From: Lactobacillus xujianguonis
GTDB taxonomy: Bacteria; Bacillota; Bacilli; Lactobacillales; Lactobacillaceae
Direction of reading: 5' to 3'
DNA length: 64,000 nt
Assembly: GCF_004009905.1 (NCBI RefSeq)
Contig: NZ_ML136878.1
Span: 1-64,000 of the forward strand
Under the pieces are notes generated by a model that worked only from the letters and a program-made list of their open reading frames with translations, made no database searches and had not been told where the DNA came from. Shown here one piece after another: positions 7,880-30,152 of the stretch. A program made the position numbers and the translations under genes. Position 1 is the first letter of the stretch. Each line of letters opens with the position of its first letter.

Positions 7880-7890
7880 CTTTTTCTCCA

Positions 7891-8463
7891 TTATTTTTCA
7901 ATTACTTGATAGCCCTTAGCTTCAAAAGCGGCTTTAACCTTTTCTTTATCAACGCCCATTACTTTGGCTCCCATGGAAATGGTCATTACTCGGCCAATGG
8001 TTTTAAGCAGGCCTGGTTCTTTAATCTTGGTAAAGCCACAATCAGCCATAATCTCGACAAAGTCGGGGTAACGCTTAGCTAATTTAATAATTGGTTCTGA
8101 GAAGTTGATGACCTTTTGCGTATCATCTGCAGTCGAATCATTAGCTACCTTCTTTGCCGCTAATTCTGCTTTACCTGCCTCATTAATCTTATCTGGTGAC
8201 CAAACCGGATACCAAACTAAGTTGATGTCACATTCTTTAATGCCGTTAACACTAGTTACTGCCTGCTTAATTTCTTTTTCTAAATCTTTGGGTAACGCGC
8301 TACCTGCTACAGGCAAGGTCATGGTGATTGTTGCTGTTTCATCCTGAACGGCTACTTGATAAATTAAACCTAAATCAACTAAATTAATACCAATCTCAGG
8401 TTCCAATACTTGTTTTAGAGCAGCGGTAATTTTTTCTTTGTTTGTTAGTTTTTTGTCTGTCAT
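7891..8463 (-). CDS. DUF59 (MIP18/SufT-like) fused to DUF1858
   Basis: 190 residues. Residues about 8-95 are a MIP18/DUF59 domain (EPEIGINLVDLGLIY, then NLVWYPVWSPDK), a family used in Fe-S cluster assembly. Residues about 115-188 are a DUF1858 domain (FSEPIIKLAKRYPDFVEIMADCGF ... GVDKEKVKAAFEAKGYQVI). The cysteine that most DUF59 proteins carry in TTPGCP is missing: the loop reads TLPVAGSALP. The paralogue at 29835-30152 has the cysteine and the same NLVWYP-WS-DK tail. The stop is adjacent to the DUF438 gene, so the two form an operon. Role in Fe-S maturation or NO response is inferred. Confidence 0.75.
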   Translation of the reverse strand: MTDKKLTNKEKITAALKQVLEPEIGINLVDLGLIYQVAVQDETATITMTLPVAGSALPKDLEKEIKQAVTSVNGIKECDINLVWYPVWSPDKINEAGKAELAAKKVANDSTADDTQKVINFSEPIIKLAKRYPDFVEIMADCGFTKIKEPGLLKTIGRVMTISMGAKVMGVDKEKVKAAFEAKGYQVIEK

Positions 8464-8533: not shown

Positions 8534-9583
8534 CTATTTTTTAGGCACATAGCCAGCTAAGATTTGCTTAGCTTGTTGTTTAGTTAAGCGATAATGGTAA
8601 TACTTTTGATAAAAGTCACGCGTTTTTTCGACCATATCTAACTGCGTAAACTGAGCTGGATGTAGTAACTTAGCAGCCCATAATACTTGCAAAGCTTCTT
8701 CTGTACTATAACGATCCCAAGGGAAGGTTCCTTGCGGATTACCGTAAACTTTTCCTTCTTCAGCTGCCGTTGTCTTTTGCAATAAAGGATCATGTTTAAC
8801 TAGTCGGCGCGCGTTAGCAGTAGTGGTTTGACCAATAATGATCACCTGCGGATTTTGCTTAACAATTTCTTCTGGATTAACTTGGACCATATTGCCGCGA
8901 GCCTTAATCGCATTTTTTCCACCAGCAAACTTAATCCATTCATTGATAATGGTTTCTTGCCCATCAACTTGCTTTAAATTTGTCGCATCCGTGATATGAA
9001 GTACCCGAACTCGTTTCTGGTTGGCAACCCGTTTTTGCACATAAGACAAATTATGAGCTAATTCCTGGTTATATCTTTTAGCGACAGTTTGATATTTTTT
9101 ACCTAAAATTTTGGCCGTCAAATTGACTGATTTTTTTAAACCAGGAAAATCAGTAAACATGGCATTCACGGTCGGAATTTTAGCTTGACGCAATTGCTTA
9201 ACTTGTCCAGGATTCGCGGCAATCGCTACATCTGGCTTAGTTTTTAAAATTTCTTCAATCTGCAAATCTTGCCCAACAAACGGCGCCTTAACTTTGGCAA
9301 TTTGCGGATCAACCTTTCTAAACCAGCCTTGTTTTTGAATCATTGGCGTAGTCGTTACTAATTTCTGTTGACCACCTAATAACAAAACGATTTGATTATT
9401 GGCATGCCACAAATCTGCTACGCGCTTCACTTGCTTGGGAATTTTAACCTTCGTGCGAGTCATATCAACTACTGTTCTAGTGTTTTTAGCAGTTGCACTA
9501 TTTTTCCCACAAGCAGTCAACATTACCAGTAAAGTAAGCACTAATGTCAACGCGAAAAAGTTTGATTTCTTCTTTAATTTCAT
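8534..9583 (-). CDS. FecB-type ABC-transporter substrate-binding lipoprotein
   Basis: 349 residues with a lipoprotein signal peptide: Lys-rich start, hydrophobic core and lipobox LTAC (Cys about residue 25). The rest is a type III periplasmic-binding-protein fold (PF01497 family) used for iron-siderophore, heme, cobalamin and, in MolABC systems, molybdate. Features: VADLWHANNQIVLLLGG, the inter-lobe helix, and NPEEIVKQNPQVIIIG. No permease or ATPase lies next to it; the matching FecCD permease and ATPase are at 27995-29756, at the far end of the nar island. It ends an operon with two unknown genes (9587-10991). Because a nitrate reductase needs molybdate and no ModABC is seen, molybdate import is an attractive inference; iron or heme remain possible. 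Confidence 0.8.
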   Translation of the reverse strand: MKLKKKSNFFALTLVLTLLVMLTACGKNSATAKNTRTVVDMTRTKVKIPKQVKRVADLWHANNQIVLLLGGQQKLVTTTPMIQKQGWFRKVDPQIAKVKAPFVGQDLQIEEILKTKPDVAIAANPGQVKQLRQAKIPTVNAMFTDFPGLKKSVNLTAKILGKKYQTVAKRYNQELAHNLSYVQKRVANQKRVRVLHITDATNLKQVDGQETIINEWIKFAGGKNAIKARGNMVQVNPEEIVKQNPQVIIIGQTTTANARRLVKHDPLLQKTTAAEEGKVYGNPQGTFPWDRYSTEEALQVLWAAKLLHPAQFTQLDMVEKTRDFYQKYYHYRLTKQQAKQILAGYVPKK

Positions 9584-12385: not shown

Positions 12386-13937
12386 GCCAAATTCCTCCAT
12401 AGAAACTTTCAGCATAAATCTGGTTCGTTGATTCGCCAGCCTCAGCCTTCTTAAAGATACTTGAGTGTTGTGGTGCTAAAGCACAGCCTTCACATTCATC
12501 GTACCCTAAGCCGCCCTGTTCAGCTTGAGCATCTTCGAGTTGAGCCTTGTTGCTTTGCGGAATAACAAAACGATCTTCATATTTAGCAATGGCTAACAAG
12601 CGATAAAGTGAAGTGGCAGTTTGTTCAGTTAAGCCCACTCTTTCTAATTTGCTGGTATCAAAGTCCTTACCACTAGTCTTAGCCCGCATGTAAAGCCGCA
12701 TCATTGCTAATTTATAAAGGGCTTTCTTAATTACTGGCACATTACCACCGGTTAACAAGTTAGCTAAGTATTCCACAGGCACCCGCATTTGATCAATTCC
12801 AGGGAAAATCATCTCAGGATTCTTAATAGAATCACGTCCTTCAAAATATGACATGACTGGTGATAGTGGTGGAATGTACCAAACCATTGGCATTGTCCGG
12901 TATTCCGGATGCAGTGGAAAGGCAATTTGATCCTTAACCGCCATCCGATAAATTGGTGACTTCTGGGCAGCGGCAATCATTTCTTCAGAAATACCGTCAG
13001 CCAAAGCTTGTTTAACAATTTCTGGATCATTAGGATCAAGGAATAATTCTCTTTGTGCTTCATAAAGCTTAGTTTCATCAGGAGTTGATGCTGCTTCTTC
13101 TACTCTGTCAGCATCATAAAGCAAGGCACCAATATATCTAATCCGGCCAACACAAGTTTCAGCACAGACAGTTGGTTGTCCTTCTTCAATTCTTGGATAA
13201 CAGAAAGTACATTTTTCTGCCTTATGCGTCTTCCAGTTGAAGTAAACCTTCTTATAAGGGCATCCCGTCATACAGAAACGCCAACCCCGACATCTTTCTT
13301 GGTCAACTAAGACAATCCCATCCTCATCACGTTTATACATCGCACCTGAAGGACAAGAAGCCACACATGGTGCATTTAAACAATGTTCACAAAGACGAGG
13401 CAAGTACATCATAAAGGCTTGTTCAAAGTTCTTCTTAATGTCAGACTCGATCTTTTGTATGTTAGGGTCTTGCTCAACATATTCTGTTGACCCAGCTAAG
13501 TCATCATCCCAGTTAGGACCAGTTTTTAATTCCATGTCTTCACCGGTAATTTGGGACTTAGGAAGAGCTACTGGTTGGTGCTTACGCTCTGGACCAAACA
13601 AAGTCTTATAGTCATAAGTCCAGGGCTCATAATAGTCATCCATTTCAGGCATATCATTATTGTAAAAGATCTTACCTAAGGCAACCTTATTTAACTTACC
13701 ACCAGCTCTTAAAGTTAACTTTCCTTTGCTGTTGAGCTTCCAACCACCATGATATTGATCTTCATCTTCCCAGCGCTTAGGGTAACCAACACCTGGCTTG
13801 GTCTCAACATTGTTAAACCACATATATTCAGCACCTGGACGATTAGTCCAAGTATTTTTGCAAGTTACGGAACAGGTATGACACCCGATACACTTATCAA
13901 GGTTTAAGACCATTTCGATTTGGGCTTTAATCTTCAC
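12378..13937 (-). CDS. narH: Respiratory nitrate reductase beta subunit (iron-sulfur)
   Basis: 519-residue electron-transfer subunit with one [3Fe-4S] and three [4Fe-4S] clusters. Cysteine groups: CIGCHTCSVTCKNTW (residues 16-30), CEHCLNAPCVASCPSG, CRGWRFCMTGCPYKK (Trp in place of the second Cys marks the 3Fe-4S site, as in E. coli NarH) and CTFCYPRI ... CAETCVGR. All expected ligands are present, so it should be functional. It starts with GTG 13937, inside the end of narG (11-nt overlap), after AAGGTGA. Partner of NarG on the cytoplasmic face of the membrane. Confidence 0.95.
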   Translation of the reverse strand: MKIKAQIEMVLNLDKCIGCHTCSVTCKNTWTNRPGAEYMWFNNVETKPGVGYPKRWEDEDQYHGGWKLNSKGKLTLRAGGKLNKVALGKIFYNNDMPEMDDYYEPWTYDYKTLFGPERKHQPVALPKSQITGEDMELKTGPNWDDDLAGSTEYVEQDPNIQKIESDIKKNFEQAFMMYLPRLCEHCLNAPCVASCPSGAMYKRDEDGIVLVDQERCRGWRFCMTGCPYKKVYFNWKTHKAEKCTFCYPRIEEGQPTVCAETCVGRIRYIGALLYDADRVEEAASTPDETKLYEAQRELFLDPNDPEIVKQALADGISEEMIAAAQKSPIYRMAVKDQIAFPLHPEYRTMPMVWYIPPLSPVMSYFEGRDSIKNPEMIFPGIDQMRVPVEYLANLLTGGNVPVIKKALYKLAMMRLYMRAKTSGKDFDTSKLERVGLTEQTATSLYRLLAIAKYEDRFVIPQSNKAQLEDAQAEQGGLGYDECEGCALAPQHSSIFKKAEAGESTNQIYAESFYGGIWRD

Positions 13938-16900
13938 TCCAAGTCACCTTCTTCAATTTTCTAACATTGGCATAAAGGTCACGCTGATTTCCAGTTGGAC
14001 CATAATAGTTCCAGCCATAACATAATTGCCCATAACCCCCAACCATGTGAGTTGGTTTAACGTGAATTTGCGTTGGAGCATTGTGAGATCCACCGCGATT
14101 CCCCGTAATTGTTGATAATGGTTCATAAATTTCATTATCTTGGGCATGGTACATGTACAAACTACCTTCTGGCATCCGGTGAGAAACAACTGCTCTAGCA
14201 GTTACTACCCCGTTACGGTTATAAAGTTCAATCCAATCATTATCTTTCACATCAATCTTAGCTGCATCTTGTGGACTCATCCAAACTGTTGGGCCACCTC
14301 TAAAGAGGGTTAACATTTCCAAGTTGTCGTAATACATGGTGTGGATATTCCACTTACCGTGTGGCGTCATGTACCGCAGAGTTACTTCTTTATCAGCTGG
14401 TTGAACGTCGACATCTTGTGGTGCCAAAACTTGTGGTGGTAAGGATGGCTTAAAGGTGGCTAGTCCTTCACCAAAGTCCAAGAAGATTTCATGATCAACA
14501 TAGTACTGCTGACGTCCAGTCAAAGTAACCCAAGGTATTTTTCTTTCAACATTTAAGGAGAATGGTGAATAACGATCCCCACCGTGTTTGGCAGAAGTCC
14601 CAATTGGCGTTGGATAAGCTTCTTGTGGTTGAGCGGTAATCTTCTGGAAGGTCATCCAGTCATCTGCATGACCGCGTCCAATGTCTTCTAACTTCTCACC
14701 GGTAACTGTTTCCTTCTTCTTCCAAGCTCGATCACATAAGCGACCATTAGAAGCAGTTGACATATGTAAGATAGCTTCACAGACATTAACGTCTTCATCC
14801 AATTTTGGTAAACCGGCATCATAACCTTCATCAAAGGTGCCTAAGCTGTCCTTTAATTCATCATAAGCATCTTGAACTTCATAGCCATAGTTGTTAACCA
14901 TATTTGGTCCTAAGGCGATAAAGCGATCATATAAGTGGTGATAGTCACGTTCAACTAAAGATAAACTTGGCATCGTCTTACCTGGAATTGGTTCAACTTC
15001 ACCCTTCTTCCAGTCACGAATTTCACCACCTACTTGGCCAATTTCACCTGGCGTGCCGTGACCTAAAGGCCGTGTCTTTAAGTCATAAACTTTTTCAGGT
15101 AAGTATTTCTTTGCCATTTCAGAGAAAGTCTTGGCTAACAACTTAAATTGTTGCCAGTCACTCTTTGATTCCCACATTGGACTAATTGCTTTATTAAATG
15201 GGTGAATGAACGGGTGCATATCCGTTGAAGATAAATCTTCTTTTTCATACCAAGTAGCTGCTGGCAAAACAACATCAGAATACATCGCAGTTGAAACCAT
15301 TCTGAAGTCCATATCAACCACTAAGTCGAGCTTACCGGTAGTTTCTTCGTCATGCCAAATCATGTCTTCTGGCTTTAAACGAGCATTCGGCTTAGCTAGC
15401 AGTCCATTTTCAGCTCCTAGTAAGTGCTTCATAAAGTATTCCGCTCCCTTACCAGAAGAAGCAAATAAGTTAGACCGCCATAAGAAGAAGTTCTTTGGTT
15501 GGTTGATTTTGGCATCAGGATCTTCTGCCGCAAATTGCAGAGTTCCCTTCTTTAATTCATCAACTACTTTAGCTGAAATTTCCTTAATGTCCTTAGTACC
15601 ATAATCTTTCACAAAGGATAAAGAACTACGGTTAAATTGTGGATATGAAGGTAGCCACCCTAAGCGAATCGCCATTTGAACGTAGTCGGCATTATGCAAA
15701 TATTGGTGACTGCTACCATAAACAGGTGAGTACTGCTTTTGGTTATCCATTTCTTCATAACGCCATTGATCAGTGGCAAAGTAATACCAAGTCGTACCTT
15801 GCTGTTGGCGAGCACCACCTTTAACCCAATCATTAGCAAAGGTGATGTTAGCCCATCCTTCTTGCGGACGCAATTTTTCTTGACCAACATAGTGAGCCCA
15901 GCCGCCACCTTGTACACCAACACAGCCACAAAGCATTAACAGGTTAATAATTGTCCGATAGTTCATGTCAGCATTGTACCAGTGGTTGACCCCACCACCC
16001 ATGATGACCATACACTTACCGCCGGTGTCTAAGGCATTTTGAGCAAATTCACGGGCGATTTGGGTAACTAATTTGGCTTTCACGCCAGTATACTGTTCTT
16101 GCCAAGCAGGAGTAAATGCAGAACTAGCATCATTTTCATCTTTAGCAGCCAGATCGTCATTGTCATGACGCTTAATCCCATATTGAGCCAAAAGCAAGTC
16201 ATAGGCAGTAGTAACATAGTGTTCACTACCATCCGCATAGGTGATTTTTCTTACTGGCAAATGCCGGGCTACAACACTGTTACCTTCATTTGAAAAGGCC
16301 GGAAAATCCACAACTACTTCTTCAGTTGGTGCATCTTGATCTAGGACACTCATGGCAGGATCAATGTCATGACCAGCTTCGTCTTTTAGTTCAATATTCC
16401 ATTTTTGACTTGGATCATATTTTTGACCAACGGTTCCGTTAGGAACAACAAAATTGTGTTGTTTTTGATCATAGACAATGGTCTTCCATTCGCCATTCTT
16501 TTCTCCTGCACCCTTAAGATCAGTTATTCTGACATAGTGCCCTGAAGTTAAATGACCATCATTAGCCTTACTCTTAACTAACTCAATGATGAATGGTAAG
16601 TCAGTGTATTGCTTAGAATAATTAATAAATTGTTGTTCATGGCGCTTTTGATAGAACTCATTCAAAATGACATAAGTCATCCCTTGAGCTACAGCTGAGT
16701 CAGTTCCCGGTTCTGGTGCAAGCCAGTCATCAGCAAACTTAACATTTTCAGCATAATCCGGACTAACGGCGACGATTTTAGATCCTTTATAACGAACTTC
16801 AGTCATAAAGTGCGCATCAGGTGTCCGCGTCAATGGAATATTAGACCCCCACATAATGATGTAGGAAGAATTGTACCAATCAGCTGATTCTGGGACATCA

Positions 16901-17592
16901 GTCTGTTCACCCCAAACTTGTGGGGATGCTGGCGGTAAGTCCGCATACCAGTCATAGAAGGATAACTCTTCCCCACCAAGTAAAGCAATAAAGCGGGCCC
17001 CAGCACTAAAGGACATCATTGACATCGCTGGAATTGGGGTAAAGCCGGCAATTCGATCAGGACCATACTTTTTAATGGTATAAATCAGTGAAGCAGAAAT
17101 TAATTCTAGTGCTTCTTGGCGGTGTACCCGAATCATGCCACCATGTCCACGGACTGACTTATATTCCTTTTCCTTAGCTGGATCTTCAACAATACTTGCC
17201 CAAGCATCAACTGGATTATCAAATTGCTTTTTAGCTTCAGTCCATAGTTTCCACAAACGTCCGCGAATATAAGGATATTTGATTCTGACTGGGCTATATT
17301 CATACCAAGAAAAACTGGCACCACGCGGGCAACCACGAGGCTCATAGCCAGGAATATTAGCACCGCAAGATGGATAATCCGTTGCCTGGTGTTCCCAAGT
17401 GATAATGCCTTGCTTAACATAAACATTCCAACTACATGAACCAGTACAGTTAACTCCGTGGGTAGTTCTAACTACTTTATCATGGGCCCAACGTTGGCGA
17501 TAAAGTTTTTCCCAGCGGCGACTTTTCTCTTCAAGTTGAGTAAAAGTCCCATTAAATTTTTCTACTTTATGAAAGAAACGCGACTTAAACAC
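13927..17592 (-). CDS. narG: Respiratory nitrate reductase alpha subunit (Mo-bisMGD)
   Basis: 1221-residue catalytic subunit reducing nitrate to nitrite at a Mo-bis-MGD centre, on the cytoplasmic face, fed by menaquinol through NarHI. The FS0 cluster motif is HGVNCTGSCSW (His ligand plus Cys, residues about 46-56) with CGANIPGYEPRGCPRG following; the molybdenum-ligating Asp is in GEQTDVPESADWYNSS. The length is close to E. coli NarG (1247). Start is GTG 17592 with AGGGGGAG 6 nt before it; a nearby ATG (17594) is out of frame. First gene of narGHJI, divergent from moeB. No lesion is visible. Confidence 0.96.
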   Translation of the reverse strand: MFKSRFFHKVEKFNGTFTQLEEKSRRWEKLYRQRWAHDKVVRTTHGVNCTGSCSWNVYVKQGIITWEHQATDYPSCGANIPGYEPRGCPRGASFSWYEYSPVRIKYPYIRGRLWKLWTEAKKQFDNPVDAWASIVEDPAKEKEYKSVRGHGGMIRVHRQEALELISASLIYTIKKYGPDRIAGFTPIPAMSMMSFSAGARFIALLGGEELSFYDWYADLPPASPQVWGEQTDVPESADWYNSSYIIMWGSNIPLTRTPDAHFMTEVRYKGSKIVAVSPDYAENVKFADDWLAPEPGTDSAVAQGMTYVILNEFYQKRHEQQFINYSKQYTDLPFIIELVKSKANDGHLTSGHYVRITDLKGAGEKNGEWKTIVYDQKQHNFVVPNGTVGQKYDPSQKWNIELKDEAGHDIDPAMSVLDQDAPTEEVVVDFPAFSNEGNSVVARHLPVRKITYADGSEHYVTTAYDLLLAQYGIKRHDNDDLAAKDENDASSAFTPAWQEQYTGVKAKLVTQIAREFAQNALDTGGKCMVIMGGGVNHWYNADMNYRTIINLLMLCGCVGVQGGGWAHYVGQEKLRPQEGWANITFANDWVKGGARQQQGTTWYYFATDQWRYEEMDNQKQYSPVYGSSHQYLHNADYVQMAIRLGWLPSYPQFNRSSLSFVKDYGTKDIKEISAKVVDELKKGTLQFAAEDPDAKINQPKNFFLWRSNLFASSGKGAEYFMKHLLGAENGLLAKPNARLKPEDMIWHDEETTGKLDLVVDMDFRMVSTAMYSDVVLPAATWYEKEDLSSTDMHPFIHPFNKAISPMWESKSDWQQFKLLAKTFSEMAKKYLPEKVYDLKTRPLGHGTPGEIGQVGGEIRDWKKGEVEPIPGKTMPSLSLVERDYHHLYDRFIALGPNMVNNYGYEVQDAYDELKDSLGTFDEGYDAGLPKLDEDVNVCEAILHMSTASNGRLCDRAWKKKETVTGEKLEDIGRGHADDWMTFQKITAQPQEAYPTPIGTSAKHGGDRYSPFSLNVERKIPWVTLTGRQQYYVDHEIFLDFGEGLATFKPSLPPQVLAPQDVDVQPADKEVTLRYMTPHGKWNIHTMYYDNLEMLTLFRGGPTVWMSPQDAAKIDVKDNDWIELYNRNGVVTARAVVSHRMPEGSLYMYHAQDNEIYEPLSTITGNRGGSHNAPTQIHVKPTHMVGGYGQLCYGWNYYGPTGNQRDLYANVRKLKKVTWSED

Positions 17593-17730
17593 ATTCGTCT
17601 CCCCCTAATCTAAAACATTCAGTAATTTTGCCTACAGCAAAGTAAGCCATTTCCCTAATATCAAGATTAGCACCGGAATTGTTATACTACGACTAGGGAA
17701 TTACCTATATTTTTGACAAAGAGGTGAAAA
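17593..17730. promoter_or_regulatory. Divergent narG/moeB control region
   Basis: 138 nt between the two operons. It holds the full palindrome at 17694-17707 and a half match, TTTCCCTAATA at 17650-17660 (TATTAGGGAAA towards narG), about 60 nt upstream of the narG start. TATACT (17683-17688) or TATATT (17706-17711) could be a moeB -10; TTGATA (minus strand, 17664-17659) could be a narG -35 with a poor -10, as expected for an activator-dependent promoter. Confidence 0.5.
17694..17707 (+). promoter_or_regulatory. Candidate nar-island operator (site A)
   Basis: TAGGGAATTACCTA is a near-perfect palindrome (one mismatched pair). It differs at one base from the site at 29754 and at two from the site at 27920. 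It lies between the divergent narGHJI and moeB operons. Confidence 0.6.
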
Positions 17731-21506: not shown

Positions 21507-21944
21507 ATGAATATTAATCAACCAAACACTAAGAGCGATTATCAAACTTTAACCAATACAATTTACCAAAATACTGACTATGACTTTGTAGCTGTTGCTC
21601 TTCAAGAAGCCACTACCCCACATTTAACGCGCTGGGTTTATGCTTCAGGTAATCAAGATGAAAGTTTTAGAAGGATCGTTTTACGTAAAGGAATCGGGAT
21701 TGCTGGCTTAGTCATGCAAACCAATAAGCCTTTCTGGCATAATAATATCCTTGAATTAGATTATAGCGATCGGCTATATACACCTATTGCGCGCGTTGAG
21801 AAACTACTAGAAGTTGCGGCAATTCCGATCACTGATCCCTTTCTTAAGATTGCCATTGGCGTTTTACTTGTTGGCTACCGCTCACATGAGCATCAAGTCT
21901 CAGAAAAAGATGTTAGCAAGTTGTCCCAATTCCTAAATGATTAG
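21507..21944 (+). CDS. nreA: Nitrate sensor NreA (GAF domain)
   Basis: 145 residues forming a single GAF domain, as in staphylococcal NreA, which binds nitrate and releases inhibition of the NreB kinase. Supporting features: RKGIGIAGLVMQTNKPFWHNN and VAAIPITDPFLKIAIGVLLVGYR. Start ATG 21507 after AGGTAG. Followed after 8 nt by nreB and then nreC, the known nreABC order. Cytoplasmic. Confidence 0.88.
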   Translation: MNINQPNTKSDYQTLTNTIYQNTDYDFVAVALQEATTPHLTRWVYASGNQDESFRRIVLRKGIGIAGLVMQTNKPFWHNNILELDYSDRLYTPIARVEKLLEVAAIPITDPFLKIAIGVLLVGYRSHEHQVSEKDVSKLSQFLND

Positions 21945-21952
21945 GAAAGTAG

Positions 21953-22990
21953 GTGTCAACTTTTTTGTTAGCAAAAGATAATTGGCTTAATACCTTTTTT
22001 GACCAGGCAGCTGATGCCATTATGATTTTTAAAGATGATCAATTGGTTCTAGCTAATCGTACTGCTCAAAACTTACAACGTGATTTTAACTTGGACTTAA
22101 ACTATTTATTAGAACTCGTTCAAAGTGAAATTGATCGTCAAAATACCGATTTTAACAATTGCAATAACTGTGAGATTCTGAAAAAGATGTCTAAAATTAG
22201 TATTCCACTAACTTTGGATCAGGATTCTACTCATCCATTAGAGTTCTCATTGATTTATTCAGTGATCGATGCTGACAACAATGTCTACTCCTTAGTTTTA
22301 AAGAGTCATGATGCCCTTAAACGTGTTGATCAAGTTGAACTCCAAAAACAGTTAACTCAATATGTTAACCAAGCACACGAAGATGAGCGGAAGCGAATCT
22401 CGCAGGATTTACATGATAGCATTGCTCAAGGAATTTATTCAGCGATTCGCGGTTTACGCCGACTTGAAGATGATAATTTACCTGACAGTGAACGACAATA
22501 TTTGAATTCAATGGTTGAAGCCCAACTAGATGATACTTTGCATGAAGTTAAGACCATGGCCTTAGATATTCGGCCAACAGTCCTTGATTCTTTCGGCTTA
22601 TCAGCTGCTATTCGCGCTTTAGTGAAACGCTCCATTGAGAATACTGGGATTGAGATTGACTTTATTGATCATGCTCAAACCGATCACTTACCTAAAAAGA
22701 TGCAAAATGTACTTTACCGGGTTACCCAAGAATCCATCAATAATGCCCTTAAACATGCCAACCCTAATGAAATATCAATTGTTTTGGTTTCTCATGATCA
22801 CTTCATCAAGCTAGAAGTTATTGATGATGGTGTCGGCTTTGACTACCATGCCGGTCAATTTAACGGGCATTCTCTTGGATTAATGAACATGGATGAACGC
22901 GTCCGGGCGCTCAACGGTTTCTTTAATATTGAATCTGCTCCAGGAAAAGGCACGACCGTTAGTGTTAAATTTCCTATCAAAAACAAATAG
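21953..22990 (+). CDS. nreB: Oxygen-sensing histidine kinase NreB
   Basis: About 345 residues, soluble. An N-terminal PAS-like sensor (about 10-125), a HisKA_3 dimerisation helix with the phosphorylated His in ERKRISQDLHDSIAQ, and an HATPase domain ending VIDDGVGF ... GHSLGLMNMDERV. Staphylococcus NreB holds an oxygen-labile [4Fe-4S] cluster on four Cys (C59-x2-C62-x11-C74-x2-C77). Here only the second pair is present (NNCNNCEI, Cys70 and Cys73); the positions of the first pair are Leu55 and Ser58, and no other Cys exists in the protein. The start is GTG 21953, or TTG 21965, which has better spacing to AGGTG. Confidence 0.85.
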   Translation: MSTFLLAKDNWLNTFFDQAADAIMIFKDDQLVLANRTAQNLQRDFNLDLNYLLELVQSEIDRQNTDFNNCNNCEILKKMSKISIPLTLDQDSTHPLEFSLIYSVIDADNNVYSLVLKSHDALKRVDQVELQKQLTQYVNQAHEDERKRISQDLHDSIAQGIYSAIRGLRRLEDDNLPDSERQYLNSMVEAQLDDTLHEVKTMALDIRPTVLDSFGLSAAIRALVKRSIENTGIEIDFIDHAQTDHLPKKMQNVLYRVTQESINNALKHANPNEISIVLVSHDHFIKLEVIDDGVGFDYHAGQFNGHSLGLMNMDERVRALNGFFNIESAPGKGTTVSVKFPIKNK

Positions 22991-23002: not shown

Positions 23003-23659
23003 ATGTATAATGTTTTGATCGCTGATGATCATGCCTTTATCCGCTCGGGAATTGCTAGTTTAATTGAAAAACAACCACAATTCAAAGTGGTTGATCAAAC
23101 TTCCAATGGAACTGATACTTACCTACGAGTCGAGCAAGGCGATATCGATATTTTAATTATGGATTTATCCATGCCACCTGGTGAAAGTGGTCTAATCACA
23201 ACGCAAAGAATTCACCATAAATTTCCAAAGGTAAAAATTATTATCCTGTCCATGCATGAGGAACAAGAATATATCAATAATGCCATGCATAATGGTGCTT
23301 TATCTTATATTTTTAAAAGCTCACCTGACTCAGAATTACTGAATGCCTTAAAACATGTCGTTTTGAATCAAAGTTATGTTGATAGCAACATTATTTTGAC
23401 TAAATCTGACATTAACGAGATTAATTCTGCAGCCGGAATTGATGATAATTTAAAAGGTTTTAATGATTTATCAAAACGTGAACAAGAAGTCTTACCTTTT
23501 GTAGCCTTGGGTTATTCTAATAAAGAAATTGCGGCTAAATTATATATTTCTACTAAGACTGTTGAAGCTCATAAAGCCCACATTGTACAAAAGTTAGGCC
23601 TTCATAGTCACGCAGATTTAGTTAGGTATGCAATTCACCATCATTTAATTGATATTTAA
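23003..23659 (+). CDS. nreC: Response regulator NreC (NarL/FixJ family)
   Basis: 218 residues. Receiver domain (1-120) with ADDH, the phosphoacceptor Asp in ILIMDLSMP and the conserved Lys in YIFKSS; LuxR-type DNA-binding domain (about 150-215) with LSKREQEVLPFVALGYSNKEIA and STKTVEAHKAHI. Partner of NreB. Expected to activate the nar genes when phosphorylated; the palindrome shared by four promoters of the island is a candidate target. Start ATG 23003 after GAGGTAA; followed by a terminator. Confidence 0.92.
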   Translation: MYNVLIADDHAFIRSGIASLIEKQPQFKVVDQTSNGTDTYLRVEQGDIDILIMDLSMPPGESGLITTQRIHHKFPKVKIIILSMHEEQEYINNAMHNGALSYIFKSSPDSELLNALKHVVLNQSYVDSNIILTKSDINEINSAAGIDDNLKGFNDLSKREQEVLPFVALGYSNKEIAAKLYISTKTVEAHKAHIVQKLGLHSHADLVRYAIHHHLIDI

Positions 23660-23696: not shown

Positions 23697-23770
23697 AGTG
23701 TTAACCCCAATATTTCTAAACTAATTTAATTGCTATAATCAAGCTAAGACTAATATTGGAGGTCAAAAAA

Positions 23771-24043
23771 ATGGCAACAAATCTCCCTTTAAATGATGAA
23801 TTAAAAGGCATTTTAAGTGATATTGCCCGCAAAAAATTTACTAATAGTCGGCAAATAAATCCACAATCAAATTTATTTCAAACAACTAAATTTGCCATTG
23901 AGCATGATTACGTTAAAGACGCCATTGTTGATGAAGACTTTAACTCAACCTTGGCAATGATGAATTTAACTAACGCCAGCTTAACCAAGAAGGGCCAATT
24001 AAAATTAGCAGAATTGACTGAATTGGAAGAAGGAACCGACTAA
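23771..24043 (+). CDS. Unknown 90-residue protein, first of a three-gene nar-island operon
   Basis: Not recognised with confidence. The C-terminal half (NLTNASLTKKGQLKLAEL) looks like a winged-helix wing and last helix of the YjcQ kind, so DNA binding is possible. The frame is open from TTG 23756, but TTGGAGG is the ribosome binding site for ATG 23771. TATAAT at 23734-23739 could be the -10. The stop overlaps the next start by 1 nt, so 23771-25922 is a single operon placed right after nreC. Confidence 0.7.
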   Translation: MATNLPLNDELKGILSDIARKKFTNSRQINPQSNLFQTTKFAIEHDYVKDAIVDEDFNSTLAMMNLTNASLTKKGQLKLAELTELEEGTD

Positions 24044-25023
24044 TGGATGCACAAGATCGTTTAAATCGCAGTTATCAAAATTCAGCGATTTATACTTCTG
24101 GCTTTTATGCTGATCCAGAAGATGAACTAAATACTCATACCAAATTATTTGATAGTTTAAAATCATTAACCATGAATCAACACGGAGATACCCAATTTTC
24201 TTTACAAATCATGACTACTAACAGTGAAATCAACGTGATGCCACTAGGCTTAGTCGACTTAAATGATTTAAAAGAATACGAAGATCGACAACGGGCTAAA
24301 TATGGTCTTAATTACAACAAAGAAGATATTCCTCTGTTAGTCCAATTTTCACCACATACTGAACATGGACAAGTCGTGAAAAAAATTATTGGGACCACCC
24401 AAGATCTATTCGGTAACTTCAACGAGGCTTTCCCTAAAATTTGGCATACAATTCGTGATTTTCTCAAGGAAAACCAAAAGATTTTAACTGAAATCGAAGC
24501 TGATTTAATTGCGGATAGCCACGATGTGAAAAAAGAATATTTTACCAATTTTTCTAAAATGTCAGCTGATCAGCGAAAAGAAGCTTTAGGTTTTGCTTTA
24601 GACGAAAAAGAAATTGCTCAATTTGCGACCTATATGGCAGATATGCATGAAGTACAAGCAATTGTTCTTTCAGCAGCCTCTTTTTCAACTAATGAATTAC
24701 TAGGGAAAAATTTGTTTGCAGACATCATGAATGACAATGTTCGGCGGTCGACTTTATTTTGGGTACTAGATAATACTTTTTACGAAATCTTTTATTATTT
24801 CTACCAAAAGTACGCGACTGACCATGAGAAAATGCAAAAATACTTACGACATCATAAAGATACTTGGATCGTTAATATGCGTAATGATGCCTTTCATCGT
24901 GCCCAAGAGCAATTAACTAATCCGAAAAATCAAATTGACTTTAATCATTACTTTACTGACATTTTTATTCCGGTTGCCCAACAATTAGCCACTGAAATTA
25001 CTAATTTTAAGGATCAAAAATGA
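24043..25023 (+). CDS. Unknown 326-residue protein in the nar island
   Basis: Not recognised. Soluble, with an N-terminal mixed part (about 1-110, FSLQIMTTNSEINVMPLGLVDL, likely beta-rich) and a mostly helical C-terminal part rich in aromatic residues (FWVLDNTFYEIFYYFYQKYATDHEKM). It contains no cysteine, so Fe-S binding is unlikely; several His occur in HHKD and DAFHRAQ. Starts at ATG 24043 on the stop of the 90-residue gene and overlaps the next gene by 4 nt. Its strict coupling suggests a complex with the 300-residue protein. Confidence 0.7.
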   Translation: MDAQDRLNRSYQNSAIYTSGFYADPEDELNTHTKLFDSLKSLTMNQHGDTQFSLQIMTTNSEINVMPLGLVDLNDLKEYEDRQRAKYGLNYNKEDIPLLVQFSPHTEHGQVVKKIIGTTQDLFGNFNEAFPKIWHTIRDFLKENQKILTEIEADLIADSHDVKKEYFTNFSKMSADQRKEALGFALDEKEIAQFATYMADMHEVQAIVLSAASFSTNELLGKNLFADIMNDNVRRSTLFWVLDNTFYEIFYYFYQKYATDHEKMQKYLRHHKDTWIVNMRNDAFHRAQEQLTNPKNQIDFNHYFTDIFIPVAQQLATEITNFKDQK

Positions 25024-25922
25024 TGAACTTGAAGGTAAATGAACAATTATCAGAAGGCTTTTTAACACTAATTGGACAGTTTCCACCGATAATTCGTGAA
25101 ATGCTTGATCTTGATTCAAATCAAGATGAACGCAATTTTCGCCTACTACTTTTCCAAACAGTATCGAGTGCTAAAGTTAGTGAATTCACGATGGACCAAG
25201 TCCAAGCAGCAAGTCTTGTCGAATTTTTAGCCCTAGCGGTTAATTTAAATCCGCCTTTCTTTAATCCTAGTCAAAATTCTCCAGCTGATTTAGCCCGGAT
25301 GAAAGCAGGTTCTTTTGCTGCTAATTATCTAATGAACCGCTACTTAAACGGCTTGGACAAGGCTGGTTTTGATAGTAGATTAATTGATGAATTAAGTACT
25401 GATGCGGGTGACTTAATGATTGCTCAAATTCAGCGCCTACAATTTAACTATAATGACCATTTTAAAGTAGCCAATTATTTAAATGATTTAAAAAATCGGA
25501 CTGGTCTTTTAGCCAATATTTTAGGCAAAGAAGCGGCCGCAAAAATTACTAAGTCAGAAGAAACAATTTCTTTAATCGGCGAAATTACCAAAAATTTAGC
25601 CGTTGCTCATCATATTAGTCATGAAAATGACCAAATTAACTCTGACTCATTTTTAAAGAAACAAATTATTGTTGGTAATTCTCCTTTGGCTTTACTATTT
25701 GCGCGTGAAGAAAATCCTGATTGGTTTCAAAATTTCTTCCATCAAACACATAAACCAAGCGAAGAACAATTCCAACAAGCCTTTAGTTTAACGCGAGCAG
25801 AAATCAAGCAAGCTGAAGAAATGGGACAAGAATTAATCAGTCAAGCACTGTTAGATATCACGGTACTACCCAGTGAAGCTCAACCAGCCTTAACTGATTT
25901 AGCAAAGTCCATGAAAAAATAG
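25020..25922 (+). CDS. Unknown 300-residue helical protein in the nar island
   Basis: Not recognised. Almost entirely helical, soluble, without cysteine. Residues about 1-75 (LTLIGQFPPIIREMLDLD ... FTMDQVQAASLVEFLAL) and a long central bundle are visible; a PSEAQPALTDLAKSMKK tail ends it. The ATGATG start at 25020 overlaps the previous stop. Ends at a strong terminator, closing the operon. It may work with the 326-residue protein; membership in nitrate metabolism rests on location only. Confidence 0.7.
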   Translation: MMNLKVNEQLSEGFLTLIGQFPPIIREMLDLDSNQDERNFRLLLFQTVSSAKVSEFTMDQVQAASLVEFLALAVNLNPPFFNPSQNSPADLARMKAGSFAANYLMNRYLNGLDKAGFDSRLIDELSTDAGDLMIAQIQRLQFNYNDHFKVANYLNDLKNRTGLLANILGKEAAAKITKSEETISLIGEITKNLAVAHHISHENDQINSDSFLKKQIIVGNSPLALLFAREENPDWFQNFFHQTHKPSEEQFQQAFSLTRAEIKQAEEMGQELISQALLDITVLPSEAQPALTDLAKSMKK

Positions 25923-27994: not shown

Positions 27995-29005
27995 TTGAAT
28001 TTACGTAGAAAGAAAATACTAGTTTTAACCATTAGCTTGGTAATGATTATTCCGGTTGCCTTACTAGCTCTGACAATTGGACGCTATCAGCTATCAATGA
28101 CGGATGTCTATCAAGCTATCGTTAATCCGCAAACTAATCCTCTAATCACCAACTTAATTTGCAATGTCCGTTTACCCAGAATTCTTGGTGCCATAGTAAT
28201 CGGAGCGGCGTTAAGTATGGCTGGTTTGGTTTTCCAAGATATTTTTGCTAATAATTTAGTGTCACCGGATTTATTAGGTGTTGCTAACGGTGCCGGTGTG
28301 GGTGCTGGATTAGCCATTATTTTAGGTCTTTCATTATGGACTATGCAGTTATGGGCTTTTATCGGAGGAATAATTGCAGTCTGTTTGACACTTTCGATTC
28401 CTTATTTATTAAAAAATAATACCCGCTTAATTCTCTTACTAACAGGCATTGTTGTTTCTGGTTTCATGCAGGCAATTTTTGGCTTAATTAAGTACTTAGC
28501 TGATCCTGATTCACAATTGCAAAGTATTGTTTATTGGCAATTGGGTAGCTTAACCAAGATTGATTTAAAAAATATCACTCTTGTTCTGCCAGTTTTTCTA
28601 CTCACTTTTCTCATTCTTTTAATTCTGCGCTGGCATCTCACTATTTTATCTTTAGGTGACCAAAGTGCGGAAACTAGTGGAATTAATGTTAAAACTGAAC
28701 GTCTGCTATTTATTATTTGTGCCACAATGTTAACTGCTAGTTCTGTATGTTTAGCAGGGACGATCGGCTGGATCGGACTAATCATTCCTCATCTAGCTCG
28801 GCGTTTAATTGGCAGTAATTCACGCTATTCTTTACCAATGGCTGGAATTATTGGCGCTTATTTTCTTTTGATTATTGATACCTTAGCCAGAACTATTTCT
28901 AATGCCGAAATTCCTTTGTCAATTTTGACTGGCTTTATTGGCACTCCGATTTTTATTTATATCTTAGTAAAAAAAGAAGGCAAAAATGGCACTCTTAACA
29001 ACTAA
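27995..29005 (+). CDS. FecCD-type ABC-transporter permease
   Basis: 336 residues, about ten membrane segments, family of BtuC/FhuB/MolB permeases. Features: VRLPRILGAIVIGAALSMAG near the start and GTIGWIGLIIPHLARRLIGSNSR in the ATPase-contact loop. The start is TTG 27995 with only a weak ribosome binding site. Overlaps the ATPase gene by 20 nt. Its binding protein is most likely the lipoprotein at 8534-9583. Substrate is iron-chelate, heme, cobalamin or, as in Haemophilus MolBCA, molybdate; its position beside Moco genes favours molybdate by inference. Confidence 0.85.
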   Translation: MNLRRKKILVLTISLVMIIPVALLALTIGRYQLSMTDVYQAIVNPQTNPLITNLICNVRLPRILGAIVIGAALSMAGLVFQDIFANNLVSPDLLGVANGAGVGAGLAIILGLSLWTMQLWAFIGGIIAVCLTLSIPYLLKNNTRLILLLTGIVVSGFMQAIFGLIKYLADPDSQLQSIVYWQLGSLTKIDLKNITLVLPVFLLTFLILLILRWHLTILSLGDQSAETSGINVKTERLLFIICATMLTASSVCLAGTIGWIGLIIPHLARRLIGSNSRYSLPMAGIIGAYFLLIIDTLARTISNAEIPLSILTGFIGTPIFIYILVKKEGKNGTLNN

Positions 29006-29756
29006 CAATCTCAGCTTTACTTACCAAAAACAAATCGTCCTCAAAAATATTAATCTTTCAATTAATGCCGGTTCAATTTTAACTATTCTCGGACCCAATG
29101 GCGTGGGAAAATCTACTTTACTCTCTTGTTTAGTAGCTCAACTTCCCCTTGCTAAACAGACAATCTACTTAGATGGACAAGACTTAACTAGTTTGAAACA
29201 TTCAGCAATTACTAAAAAGATTGCCTTTATGCCACAAAAATATCAAATCACTAATTCTTTAACCGTCATGGATTTCATTACAACTGCTCGCGTTGCTTAC
29301 TTGAAGTTTTACCAAATTCCCACCAAAAAAGATGAAGCTTTGGCTGCACAAGTACTCAAAAAATTAAATATCTATTCTTTACGCAATTGCTTTGTCAATA
29401 CCTTAAGCGGCGGACAAATGCAATTGGTGGCGCTAGCTAAAGCTTTAGTTCAAGAACCAAAACTATTGATTTTAGATGAACCGTTAGCTGCCCTTGATTT
29501 TGGTTATCAACAATTGATTTTGAAAAAGTTAAAGGACTTAGCTAGCCAAGGGATGGCAATTATGATTACTACCCATACTCCTAATCATGCCCTCTTTCTT
29601 AATGATCAAGTTGGCTTACTCTATCCTGACCATCAATTTCTAATTGGTAACTGTGCAGAAATCATGACCACTGCCAATTTAGAGCAACTCTATCACTGCC
29701 AGCTTAAAGTCTTTACTACTCCTGAGCTAGACTATCCACTTTGTGAATTTTTATAG
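28986..29756 (+). CDS. ABC-transporter ATPase of the FecCD-type importer
   Basis: 256 residues with Walker A GPNGVGKSTLL, Q-loop MPQKYQ, signature LSGGQMQ, Walker B LLILDEP and switch His in TTHTPNH. FecE/BtuD-like. Overlaps the permease by 20 nt, so the two form one transporter. The stop codon TAG at 29754-29756 is the first three bases of palindrome site B, the promoter of the next transcript. Confidence 0.9.
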   Translation: MALLTTNNLSFTYQKQIVLKNINLSINAGSILTILGPNGVGKSTLLSCLVAQLPLAKQTIYLDGQDLTSLKHSAITKKIAFMPQKYQITNSLTVMDFITTARVAYLKFYQIPTKKDEALAAQVLKKLNIYSLRNCFVNTLSGGQMQLVALAKALVQEPKLLILDEPLAALDFGYQQLILKKLKDLASQGMAIMITTHTPNHALFLNDQVGLLYPDHQFLIGNCAEIMTTANLEQLYHCQLKVFTTPELDYPLCEFL

Positions 29757-29767
29757 GGATTTACCTA
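29754..29767 (+). promoter_or_regulatory. Candidate nar-island operator (site B)
   Basis: TAGGGATTTACCTA, 13 of 14 identical to the site in the narG/moeB region. It begins at the ATPase stop codon and lies 68 nt upstream of the DUF59 gene. TAGACT (29791-29796) could be the -10, which would centre the site near -42, an activator position. Confidence 0.6.
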
Positions 29768-29834
29768 ATACTATTTCCTAAGATTCCATCTAGACTTAAA
29801 GTGGATATTGATCATCTTAGGAAGGACGAAAAAA

Positions 29835-30152
29835 ATGGACAACAAAAAAATCGCCAATGACGTCATTGCAGCTTTGGAGGATGTAATCGATCCAGAACTA
29901 GGAATTGATATTGTCAATTTAGGTTTAATTTATGATGTCGATGTTGACGACCAAGGTAAATGCAAAATTAATATGACTTTAACTACCCCTGGTTGTCCTC
30001 TTTCTGACGTTTTAAATCATGATATTGATCAAAAAGCCCGCAGCGTCGACGGTATCAACGATGTCGAGATTAATTTAGTCTGGTATCCAATTTGGTCAAT
30101 GGATAAAATGTCACGCTATGCCAAAATTGCCTTAGGCATTGGAGGCATGTAA
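29835..30152 (+). CDS. DUF59 / MIP18-family Fe-S assembly protein
   Basis: 105 residues. DPELGIDIVNLGLIY and LTTPGCPLSDVL, with the conserved Cys, identify the MIP18 (SufT/PaaD-like) family, used in maturing Fe-S proteins. NarGH needs five clusters, which gives a plausible client. The longest frame begins at 29808, but AAGGACG precedes ATG 29835. The paralogue at 7891-8463 lacks the Cys. Probably co-transcribed with the DMT permease. Confidence 0.85.
   Translation: MDNKKIANDVIAALEDVIDPELGIDIVNLGLIYDVDVDDQGKCKINMTLTTPGCPLSDVLNHDIDQKARSVDGINDVEINLVWYPIWSMDKMSRYAKIALGIGGM

What the first reader, a model, noticed from the sequence alone, without database searches (positions are those of the whole stretch)
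21953..22990. NreB kinase lacks two of the four cluster cysteines
In staphylococcal NreB four Cys bind the oxygen-labile [4Fe-4S] cluster. This protein has only two Cys, both in NNCNNC (70 and 73). The positions of the first CxxC are Leu55 and Ser58. It may therefore bind a different cluster, form one at the dimer interface, or not sense oxygen at all and rely on NreA/nitrate.
Basis: partly seen in the sequence, partly recalled or inferred. Interest (0 to 1): 0.62.

Follow-up and report, generated by a model that had tools for sequence, protein, structure and literature searches.

The report
Lactobacillus NreB keeps half its cluster site
A bacterial sensor protein annotated as an oxygen sensor has lost half of the cysteines that hold its iron-sulphur cluster; the same loss is seen across its relatives in lactobacilli, where the sensor pair also appears to control genes that build iron-sulphur clusters.

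Summary
The 345-residue kinase at 21953-22990 has only Cys70 and Cys73; Leu55 and Ser58 stand at the first CxxC. It is no oddity or error: 59 of 59 full-length Lactobacillaceae homologs have the second CxxC and lack the first; 58 of 72 homologs elsewhere have all four. A kinase-domain tree suggests one origin. In models the lost half-site became helix. Two Limosilactobacillus kinases lost the second CxxC too, and keep NreA.

New here: a palindrome about 100 bp before the window's narG is conserved in relatives (20 of 26) and is the probable NreC box. In lactobacilli without narG or NreA, nreBC mostly sits beside the suf (Fe-S assembly) operon, with an exact box before sufC in 12 of 13 genomes, against 0 of 48 without NreB even at one mismatch. 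The window genome's only other copy precedes a SufT-like gene.

Best reading: a redox/Fe-S-supply kinase built on a half site, controlling nar and Fe-S supply. The chemistry at CxxC is unresolved and the "oxygen sensor" label is unproven here.

The parts
21953..22990 (+). nreB: PAS-HisKA_3-HATPase_c sensor kinase, 345 aa, two Cys only
   Evidence: model
22016..22306 (+). PAS core of NreB (residues 22-118)
   Evidence: order of strands and helices in the AlphaFold model; no Pfam PAS hit
22115..22126 (+). codons 55-58, where the first CxxC stands in staphylococcal NreB; here Leu-Val-Gln-Ser inside a continuous helix 49-67
   Evidence: in the 4-Cys homolog L101 residues 57-81 are a segment with pLDDT under 50
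22160..22171 (+). codons 70-73, Cys-Asn-Asn-Cys, the retained half of the cluster site, in the loop after the long helix
   Evidence: 59/59 conserved; pLDDT 61 and 52 for the blocks 61-70 and 71-80
22385..22585 (+). HisKA_3 domain (residues 145-211) with His154, the expected phospho-acceptor
   Evidence: Pfam PF07730 E 7.8e-9; His154 invariant in 51 sequences
21507..21944 (+). nreA: GAF-domain nitrate receptor homolog
   Evidence: NCBIfam NF038250 E 1.8e-23 but 82.9 bits against a cut-off of 175; matches solved NreA 6izk and 4iuh
23003..23659 (+). nreC: response regulator with LuxR-type DNA-binding domain
   Evidence: Pfam Response_reg and GerE
17694..17707 (.). probable NreC box TAGGGAATTACCTA, about 100 bp upstream of narG
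   Evidence: within 300 bp upstream of narG in 20 of 26 relatives
29754..29767 (.). second probable NreC box TAGGGATTTACCTA, begins in the stop codon of the ABC ATPase gene, upstream of the SufT-like gene
   Evidence: only other TAGGGNNNNNCCTA in the genome; sequence printed
29808..30152 (+). SufT-like DUF59 protein (SUF system-associated); ATG at 29835 is the likelier start
   Evidence: NCBIfam TIGR02945 E 7.7e-34, below its cut-off (116 against 143.4 bits)
13927..17592 (-). narG, catalytic subunit of respiratory nitrate reductase
   Evidence: TIGR01580 1669 bits, over its cut-off

Best explanation
This is the Lactobacillaceae form of the NreB kinase. A four-Cys PAS cluster site lost its first CxxC, most simply once at the base of the family; that stretch became helix, and only the second CxxC (Cys70/Cys73) was kept. 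Shown here: the clustering of the two-Cys form on the tree, the near-universal retention of the CxxC, the conserved box before narG, and the association of nreBC and that box with suf (and feo). Inferred: that NreC binds the box; that the CxxC is the kinase's own input beside NreA/nitrate; and that this input reports redox state and Fe-S supply, so that NreC~P switches on nitrate reductase together with Fe-S assembly and ferrous iron uptake when cells are anaerobic. Most likely chemistry at the CxxC, committed to at about 0.4: a labile Fe-S (or iron) site held by Cys70/Cys73 with the remaining ligands from a second protomer or a small thiol. The confidence below is for the functional claim (CxxC is the retained sensory element and NreBC controls nar plus Fe-S supply), not for that chemistry.
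For: 59/59 retention of Cys70/73 and 0/59 of the first pair; kinase-domain-only tree with the two-Cys set as one clade, SH-aLRT 99. NreA-less copies keep the CxxC in 24 of 24. Box within 300 bp upstream of narG in 20 of 26 named loci; of 25 matches in 370 kb, 20 lie in those 7.8 kb. 17 of 22 genomes whose NreB lacks NreA have no narG match; in 13 of the 17 NreB is within 6 kb of sufB, and a 14th (G165) has a sufB fragment on the same short contig. Exact box within 300 bp upstream of sufC in 12 of 13 such genomes, up to 1 mismatch in 8 of 28 nar-linked ones, 0 of 48 NreB-less ones; Fisher 7e-12 and 2e-4. In the seven of those loci read in full with an exact box, it lies between sufC and a divergent FeoA-like gene (FeoA by Pfam in L310, L312 and L314, FeoB in L314; the rest by likeness). 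The palindrome extends into flanks not used in the search. SUF-adjacent kinases have 4-5 PAS Cys in 12 of 14 against 2 in 39 of 40 nar-linked ones, at different positions in different genera around the constant CxxC; the NreC of 13 of those loci has 0-1 Cys. In the window genome both boxes lie in this locus, one before narG and one before a SufT-like gene.
Against: Two Limosilactobacillus kinases (L220, L225; perhaps one deletion) and one zero-Cys kinase outside the family (L144) lack the CxxC although NreA, NreC and, in the first two, narG with its box remain, so the CxxC is not indispensable. The box is missing within 300 bp of narG in all 5 Loigolactobacillus loci with narG, and 20 of 28 nar-linked genomes have no box within one mismatch before sufC. 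Genome-wide the pattern is hardly enriched: 72 matches in 36 genomes against 63 for the reversed pattern, so the evidence rests on position. The 13 SUF-linked genomes come from four genera, and 7 of the 12 exact sites were the discovery set, so the tests overstate independence. The window's own genome shows no SufB or NifU_N match, which sits badly with a cluster-based sensor there. No experiment known to me links NreC to the box in lactobacilli.
Confidence: 0.55

Rival explanations
1. Dithiol/disulphide switch: no cluster at all; Cys70 and Cys73 are reduced and the kinase active without oxygen, and a disulphide between them in air turns it off.
For: Only two Cys in most nar-linked kinases and no other conserved ligand but Asp21; the CxxC lies in a low-confidence loop. 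Precedent in related bacteria: FNR-like proteins of Gram-positives often have two Cys instead of four, and Flp of Lactobacillus casei might act without an Fe-S cluster (PMC5039431, passages; the disulphide mechanism itself is recalled). No SufB or NifU_N match in the window genome.
Against: Most SUF-adjacent relatives have four or five PAS cysteines, which a simple disulphide does not need. The second CxxC resembles that of the four-Cys homologs in its surroundings.
Confidence: 0.3
2. The CxxC no longer senses anything; NreB is gated by NreA and nitrate alone.
For: L220, L225 and L144 lack the CxxC and all have NreA. NreA keeps the pocket Trp in 35 of 35 aligned lactobacillal rows (pocket residues recalled).
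Against: 24 of 59 copies have no NreA and all keep the CxxC. In the homologs counted here, loss of the CxxC is seen only beside NreA, as if one input must remain (three cases, probably two events). Residues 71 and 72 between the two Cys vary freely.
Confidence: 0.15
3. Structural zinc or another fixed metal at the CxxC, no redox role.
For: CxxC pairs commonly bind zinc (general knowledge); a site shared by two protomers is possible.
Against: Loss of the pair is tolerated in L220/L225 with the rest of the kinase intact; NreB of staphylococci binds an O2-sensitive cluster through its PAS Cys (PMC4601167, passages).
Confidence: 0.1
4. The suf/feo link reflects only that nitrate reductase needs many Fe-S clusters, so genes cluster for supply, with no regulation of suf by NreBC.
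For: sufB lies 13-34 kb from nreB in 10 of 35 NreA-bearing cases. Most nar-linked genomes have no close box before sufC.
Against: The links under 6 kb are all in genomes without a narG match, and the sufC box goes with the presence of nreBC.
Confidence: 0.15

Closest known systems
NreB of Staphylococcus carnosus/aureus (NreABC oxygen and nitrate sensing system)
   Same: PAS-HisKA_3-HATPase kinase, gene order nreA-nreB-nreC, nitrate reductase genes beside it, second CxxC retained, a palindrome before nar.
   Different: First CxxC absent and that stretch helical in the model; about 25% identity to the four-Cys homologs; NreA scores well below the curated cut-off; part of the family stands beside suf.
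Two-Cys FNR-like proteins of Gram-positives (Flp of Lactobacillus casei, FlpA of Lactococcus lactis, FlpS of Streptococcus suis)
   Same: Same kind of change in related bacteria: two Cys where the four-Cys relative holds an O2-labile cluster (PMC5039431, passages).
   Different: Transcription factors of the CRP/FNR fold, not PAS kinases (general knowledge).
NreBC of Bacillus licheniformis MW3
   Same: NreBC homolog described without an NreA component, with a PAS domain outside the known Fe-S and haem PAS groups and another regulon (PMC9918477, passages).
   Different: Regulates sqr/pdo and responds to sulphide; its sequence was not compared here.
Regulators of Fe-S assembly (IscR, SufR; PerR and CysR on sufCDSUB in Streptococcus mutans)
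   Same: Act on Fe-S assembly genes (PMC11631912, passages).
   Different: One-component regulators; no two-component system on suf/feo was seen in the listings (20 of 28 papers shown; 12 of 89; 12 of 25).

Membership tests
NreB, staphylococcal oxygen-sensing kinase | Four cluster cysteines, CX2C-X11-CX2C in the PAS domain | tested here: not met
   two of four in the window and in 59/59 Lactobacillaceae
NreB, staphylococcal oxygen-sensing kinase | O2-labile [4Fe-4S] cluster | not testable with these tools
   needs purified protein
NreB, staphylococcal oxygen-sensing kinase | PAS + HisKA_3 + HATPase_c | tested here: met
   Pfam HisKA_3 and HATPase_c; PAS-like order of strands and helices, and PAS/LOV kinases among the best PDB matches
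NreABC system | nreA directly upstream and nreC directly downstream | tested here: met
   (8 bp between nreA and nreB)
NreABC system | NreA at or above the curated family score | tested here: not met
   82.9 against 175 bits; 0 of 397 Lactobacillaceae genomes searched reach it
NreABC system | Control of nar through an NreC palindrome | tested here: inconclusive
   conserved palindrome before narG, binding not shown
Regulator of SUF-type Fe-S assembly | Probable binding site before suf tied to the regulator's presence | tested here: inconclusive
   met in SUF-linked relatives (12/13 exact) and partly in nar-linked ones (8/28), 0/48 without NreB; the window genome has no sufB match, only a SufT-like target
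Regulator of SUF-type Fe-S assembly | Expression of suf changes when the regulator is deleted | not testable with these tools
   no expression data

The most novel reading that the evidence does not exclude
The lactobacillal NreBC is a two-component regulator of Fe-S cluster assembly and ferrous iron uptake whose PAS kinase reads the cell's Fe-S state through a half cluster site: nitrate respiration was the ancestral target, and in lineages without narG and NreA the pair was kept beside the suf operon and rebuilt with new cysteine ligands around the constant CxxC.
Probability: 0.4. Interest if true: 0.76.

Novelty: new variant of a known kind. Interest (0 to 1): 0.6.

Why it matters
NreBC of lactobacilli is described by analogy as an oxygen-sensing system (for example in strains of Lactiplantibacillus plantarum, PMC8910486, passages), yet the ligand set behind that label is half gone in the family. 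The case gives a graded natural series (four Cys, rearranged, two, none) on which to test how an Fe-S PAS sensor can lose, keep or rebuild its site. The suf/feo link proposes a regulator for Fe-S assembly in lactobacilli, where a co-expressed group of suf genes and feoB without an assigned regulator has been reported for L. reuteri (PMC10949432, passages), and it can be tested with standard gene deletions in food-grade strains.

Tried and rejected
Rejected: sequencing error or pseudogene (59/59 relatives share it). Rejected: replacement ligands elsewhere in the PAS domain (no Cys/His/Asp/Glu column at 90% but 70, 73 and, in the nar-linked set, Asp21). Rejected: Cys ligands from NreA (the window's NreA has no Cys). 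Kept out of the counts: a box 313-332 bp before a SufT-like gene in three Companilactobacillus genomes, because it lies inside the coding sequence of an MFS gene (narK-like by eye). One nar-linked genome (G370) has an exact box before sufC. Many of the other boxes seen lie inside or near genes with no evident link, and the pattern is hardly enriched genome-wide (72 matches against 63 for the reversed pattern in 36 genomes). The scan with the recalled staphylococcal form TAGGGN4CCCTA gave 11 matches at up to 2 mismatches against 11.7 expected and is not evidence by itself. A sequence search of solved structures with NreB gave five hits, all within its kinase part (residues 134-343). Literature on oxygen control of nar in lactobacilli: nothing decisive in the listings or in passages of PMC11354895; in PMC10949432 the nitrate reductase group of L. 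reuteri is put under "anaerobic fermentation" (passages), which is only suggestive. An intersubunit cluster could not be tested, because only single chains are predicted and no coordinates were available to me.

What was dropped before counts: the fragmented NreB of G308 and the 34-35% second hits of G081/G108; three distant kinases without the pattern (L159, L175, L181) from the tree and from the remark on CxxC loss; G165 from the sufC count because its sufC was not on the stretch held. For one search I examined 13 of 14 SUF-linked genomes, 28 of 39 nar-linked genomes with sufB, none of the Lentilactobacillus ones, and 48 of 66 NreB-less genomes found to have sufB (8 of 8 of the window genus, 40 of 58). 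"NreB-less" means no match at E 1e-30. The shuffle control keeps single-base composition only. The pattern was set from narG sites and the window, before the sufC regions were scanned; 7 of its 12 exact sites are the ones first seen.

Full report
OBSERVATION. The open reading frame 21953-22990 (+) gives 345 residues from a GTG start with two cysteines only, Cys70 and Cys73 in NNCNNC; Leu55 and Ser58 stand where the spacing CX2C-X11-CX2C puts the first pair (the staphylococcal numbering C59, C62, C74, C77 is recalled, and loci L101 and L114 show the same numbers). Pfam finds HisKA_3 at 145-211 and HATPase_c at 253-343. NreA ends 8 bp upstream and NreC follows. The assembly holds one copy.

IT IS FAMILY-WIDE. 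Of 397 Lactobacillaceae genomes searched (a sample of the family), 58 have an NreB-like protein at E 1e-30. I aligned 59 full-length copies from 57 of them: Cys70 and Cys73 in 59/59; position 55 is I, V, L or M and position 58 is A, S, T, N or L, never Cys. Named loci with both Cys and without the first pair include Lactiplantibacillus plantarum (L223) and Limosilactobacillus reuteri (L213), among 47 of 49. Of 131 homologs classified, 59 are of this type, 58 have the classical four, 10 from other Lactobacillales have CX8CX2C with further Cys elsewhere, and 4 have none of these patterns. A tree from kinase-domain columns only, so independent of the PAS domain, puts the 59 in one clade (SH-aLRT 99), the 58 on one side of another branch (99), and the rearranged ones on the lactobacillal side (quick method, several long branches). 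The simplest reading is one loss of the first CxxC, with the second kept since.

EXCEPTIONS. Among the 49 named loci, two Limosilactobacillus kinases (L220 intestinipullorum, L225 panis) lack the second CxxC as well, through a deletion. Both have NreA, narG and the narG box. A zero-Cys kinase in another Lactobacillales genome (L144) also has an NreA-like and an NreC-like gene beside it. By contrast all 24 copies without NreA keep the CxxC. The CxxC thus seems dispensable only where NreA remains; the sample is small.

STRUCTURE. AlphaFold models (single chains) give a PAS-like domain joined to a DesK/VraS-like kinase. In the window protein a continuous helix 49-67 runs through the lost first pair, and the retained CxxC sits in the loop after it (pLDDT 61 and 52 for residues 61-70 and 71-80). 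In a four-Cys homolog (L101) residues 57-81, which hold all four Cys, have pLDDT below 50 and almost no secondary structure, as expected for a cluster-organised loop predicted without its metal. The change is therefore a remodelling of half the site, not only a loss of two side chains. Distances and dimers could not be examined.

NO SUBSTITUTE LIGANDS IN THE NITRATE-LINKED FORM. In 40 nar-linked kinases the PAS domain has exactly two Cys in 39, and the only other Cys/His/Asp/Glu column conserved at 90% is Asp21. The rest of the protein has no Cys in 36 of 40.

THE PALINDROME. TAGG-N6-CCTA occurs twice in the window (17694-17707, about 100 bp upstream of narG; 29754-29767, upstream of a SufT-like gene), where 0.6 is expected by chance. 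TAGGGNNNNNCCTA occurs in the whole 2.2 Mb genome only at these two places; the reversed control pattern occurs 16 times. In 26 named loci with narG it lies within 300 bp upstream in 20 (94-193 bp); of the six misses one (L189) has it about 400 bp upstream and five are Loigolactobacillus. Genome-wide the pattern TAGGGAWNNNCCTA is hardly more frequent than its reversed control in 36 NreB genomes (72 against 63), so the argument rests on where it lies. NreC of S. carnosus is reported to bind a GC-rich palindrome (PMC5694512, passages), so I take this as the NreC box; binding in lactobacilli is not shown.

THE SUF/FEO LINK. 24 of 59 copies have no NreA beside them. Of 22 genomes whose NreB lacks NreA, 17 have no narG match at E 0.001. 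In 13 of those 17 NreB lies 2.5-5.2 kb from sufB, in a fourteenth (G165) a sufB fragment is on the same short contig, and the remaining three are Lentilactobacillus, where nreBC stands next to an XRE-type regulator, in two of the three with a SufT-like gene. In Furfurilactobacillus and g16 the order is sufC-sufD-sufS-sufU-sufB-sufT-XRE-nreB-nreC (one locus, L313, has a further gene before nreB); in g3 and S. malefermentans nreBC faces the operon from the other end. In seven such loci read in full (L310-L316) the only match at up to one mismatch lies between sufC and a divergent FeoA-like gene (Pfam FeoA in L310, L312, L314 and FeoB in L314); in an eighth (L317, S. collinoides) there is none. 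Within 300 bp upstream of sufC the box TAGGGANNNNCCTA is exact in 12 of 13 SUF-linked genomes (the thirteenth, S. collinoides, has two mismatches at a similar distance); in nar-linked genomes it is exact in 1 and within one mismatch in 8 of 28; in NreB-less Lactobacillaceae it is within one mismatch in 0 of 48 (four reach two mismatches). Shuffled upstream regions reach one mismatch in 1.3% and none exactly. Fisher tests give 7e-12 and 2e-4, but the genomes are related, the 12 exact sites represent four genera, and seven of them were the discovery set. The sites extend as palindromes into flanks not used for the search: the four positions next to the core are complementary in 6, 6, 5 and 6 of 6 distinct sites. 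On the tree the main suf-linked group (g3, g16, g25, S. malefermentans and a second S. collinoides copy) is nested inside the nar-linked two-Cys clade, so it looks derived.

NEW CYSTEINES. In the 14 suf-adjacent kinases the PAS domain has 4-5 Cys in 12, 3 in one and 2 in one; beyond 70 and 73 they stand at 34, 40 and 119 (g16), 90 and mostly 119 (Furfurilactobacillus), 76 with or without 98 (g3), or 40, 69 and 76 (S. malefermentans). Their kinase parts have more Cys too (1-5 in 13 of 14), so the gain is not confined to the PAS domain. The NreC of 13 of these loci has 0-1 Cys; among 19 nar-linked NreC checked, all have 0-1 except one over-long reading frame with 3. Different lineages have added different cysteines around the same CxxC, which is what one expects if the CxxC is the constant half of a metal or cluster site.

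WHAT IT MOST LIKELY DOES. NreB passes phosphate to NreC, which acts at the narG box and, in relatives, at the sufC box; the CxxC is a second input beside NreA. I favour a labile Fe-S or iron site completed by a second protomer or a small thiol (about 0.4), with a dithiol/disulphide switch next (about 0.3). For the latter there is a precedent in two-Cys FNR-like proteins (PMC5039431, passages). Against a cluster in the window's own host: it shows no SufB and no NifU_N match, the only one of 57 NreB genomes without SufB; 13 of 21 genomes of its genus sampled lack it. NarG is full-length there and NarH an uninterrupted frame, so some route of Fe-S maturation should exist, or the assembly is incomplete.

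COMPARISON. Domain make-up, gene order and target agree with NreABC of staphylococci; the four-Cys site and the NreA score cut-off do not. I therefore call it a variant of the NreB kinases and not a four-Cys oxygen sensor. Bacillus licheniformis NreBC, described as a sulphide-responsive pair (PMC9918477, passages), shows that NreBC homologs can be re-used. Searches that combined NreB/NreC/NreBC with Lactobacillus, suf or feoB, or suf with two-component systems and lactic acid bacteria, listed no paper on the missing cysteines or on suf control by NreBC; they showed 7 of 7, 20 of 28, 12 of 89 and 12 of 25 papers, and the library holds open-licence papers only.

PAPERS. Seen as passages: PMC9918477, PMC4601167, PMC8139620, PMC8910486, PMC11354895, PMC10949432, PMC5039431, PMC11631912, PMC5694512, PMC3734008. 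PMC4982691 only in search listings. The original NreC and NreABC regulon papers tried were not held; the original NreB and NreA papers were not tried and are known to me from reviews and recall.

Noticed in passing
whole genome G000 (window contig C8): No SufB (TIGR01980) and no NifU_N (PF01592) match in a 99.4% complete assembly that carries narG, whose enzyme needs several Fe-S clusters; 13 of 21 genomes of the genus sampled lack SufB.
   Followed up: partly
6662-7891 (-) and 7891-8463 (-): A DUF438-hemerythrin-PAS_10 protein, a possible further O2 or NO sensor, next to a second SufT-like protein, both near the nitrate genes.
   Followed up: partly
L220 and L225 (Limosilactobacillus intestinipullorum, L. 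panis): NreB with the second CxxC deleted as well, in nar loci with NreA: a natural test of nitrate-only control.
   Followed up: partly
L122-L128, L130, L134, L135 (other Lactobacillales): NreB with C-X8-C-X2-C and further Cys. In the L122/L182 genome there is only a weak narG match, and NreABC stands beside siroheme-type genes recognised by eye.
   Followed up: partly
L144 (order Lactobacillales, G871): NreB with no cysteine at all beside NreA-like and NreC-like genes.
   Followed up: no
23756-25922 (+): Three genes of unknown family after nreC; by eye, counterparts follow nreC in L. caviae (L067, L221) and at least two do in Companilactobacillus (L322). No NCBIfam hits.
   Followed up: no
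L226:5718-6599, L072:5167-6060, L200:8788-9672: An XRE-type regulator of about 295 aa recurs next to the SufT-like gene and nreBC, a second candidate regulator of suf in lactobacilli.
   Followed up: no
window NreA, 21507-21944: The Tyr directly before Pro-Ile of the nitrate pocket in staphylococcal NreA is not at that place in 35 of 35 lactobacillal rows (YTPI 26, SQPI 4, YSPI 2, SCPI 2, YQPI 1; pocket residues recalled).
   Followed up: partly
27995-29756 (+) and 8534-9583 (-): Permease and ATPase of an iron/haem/B12-type ABC transporter, and a binding protein, on either side of the nitrate genes; substrate unknown.
   Followed up: no
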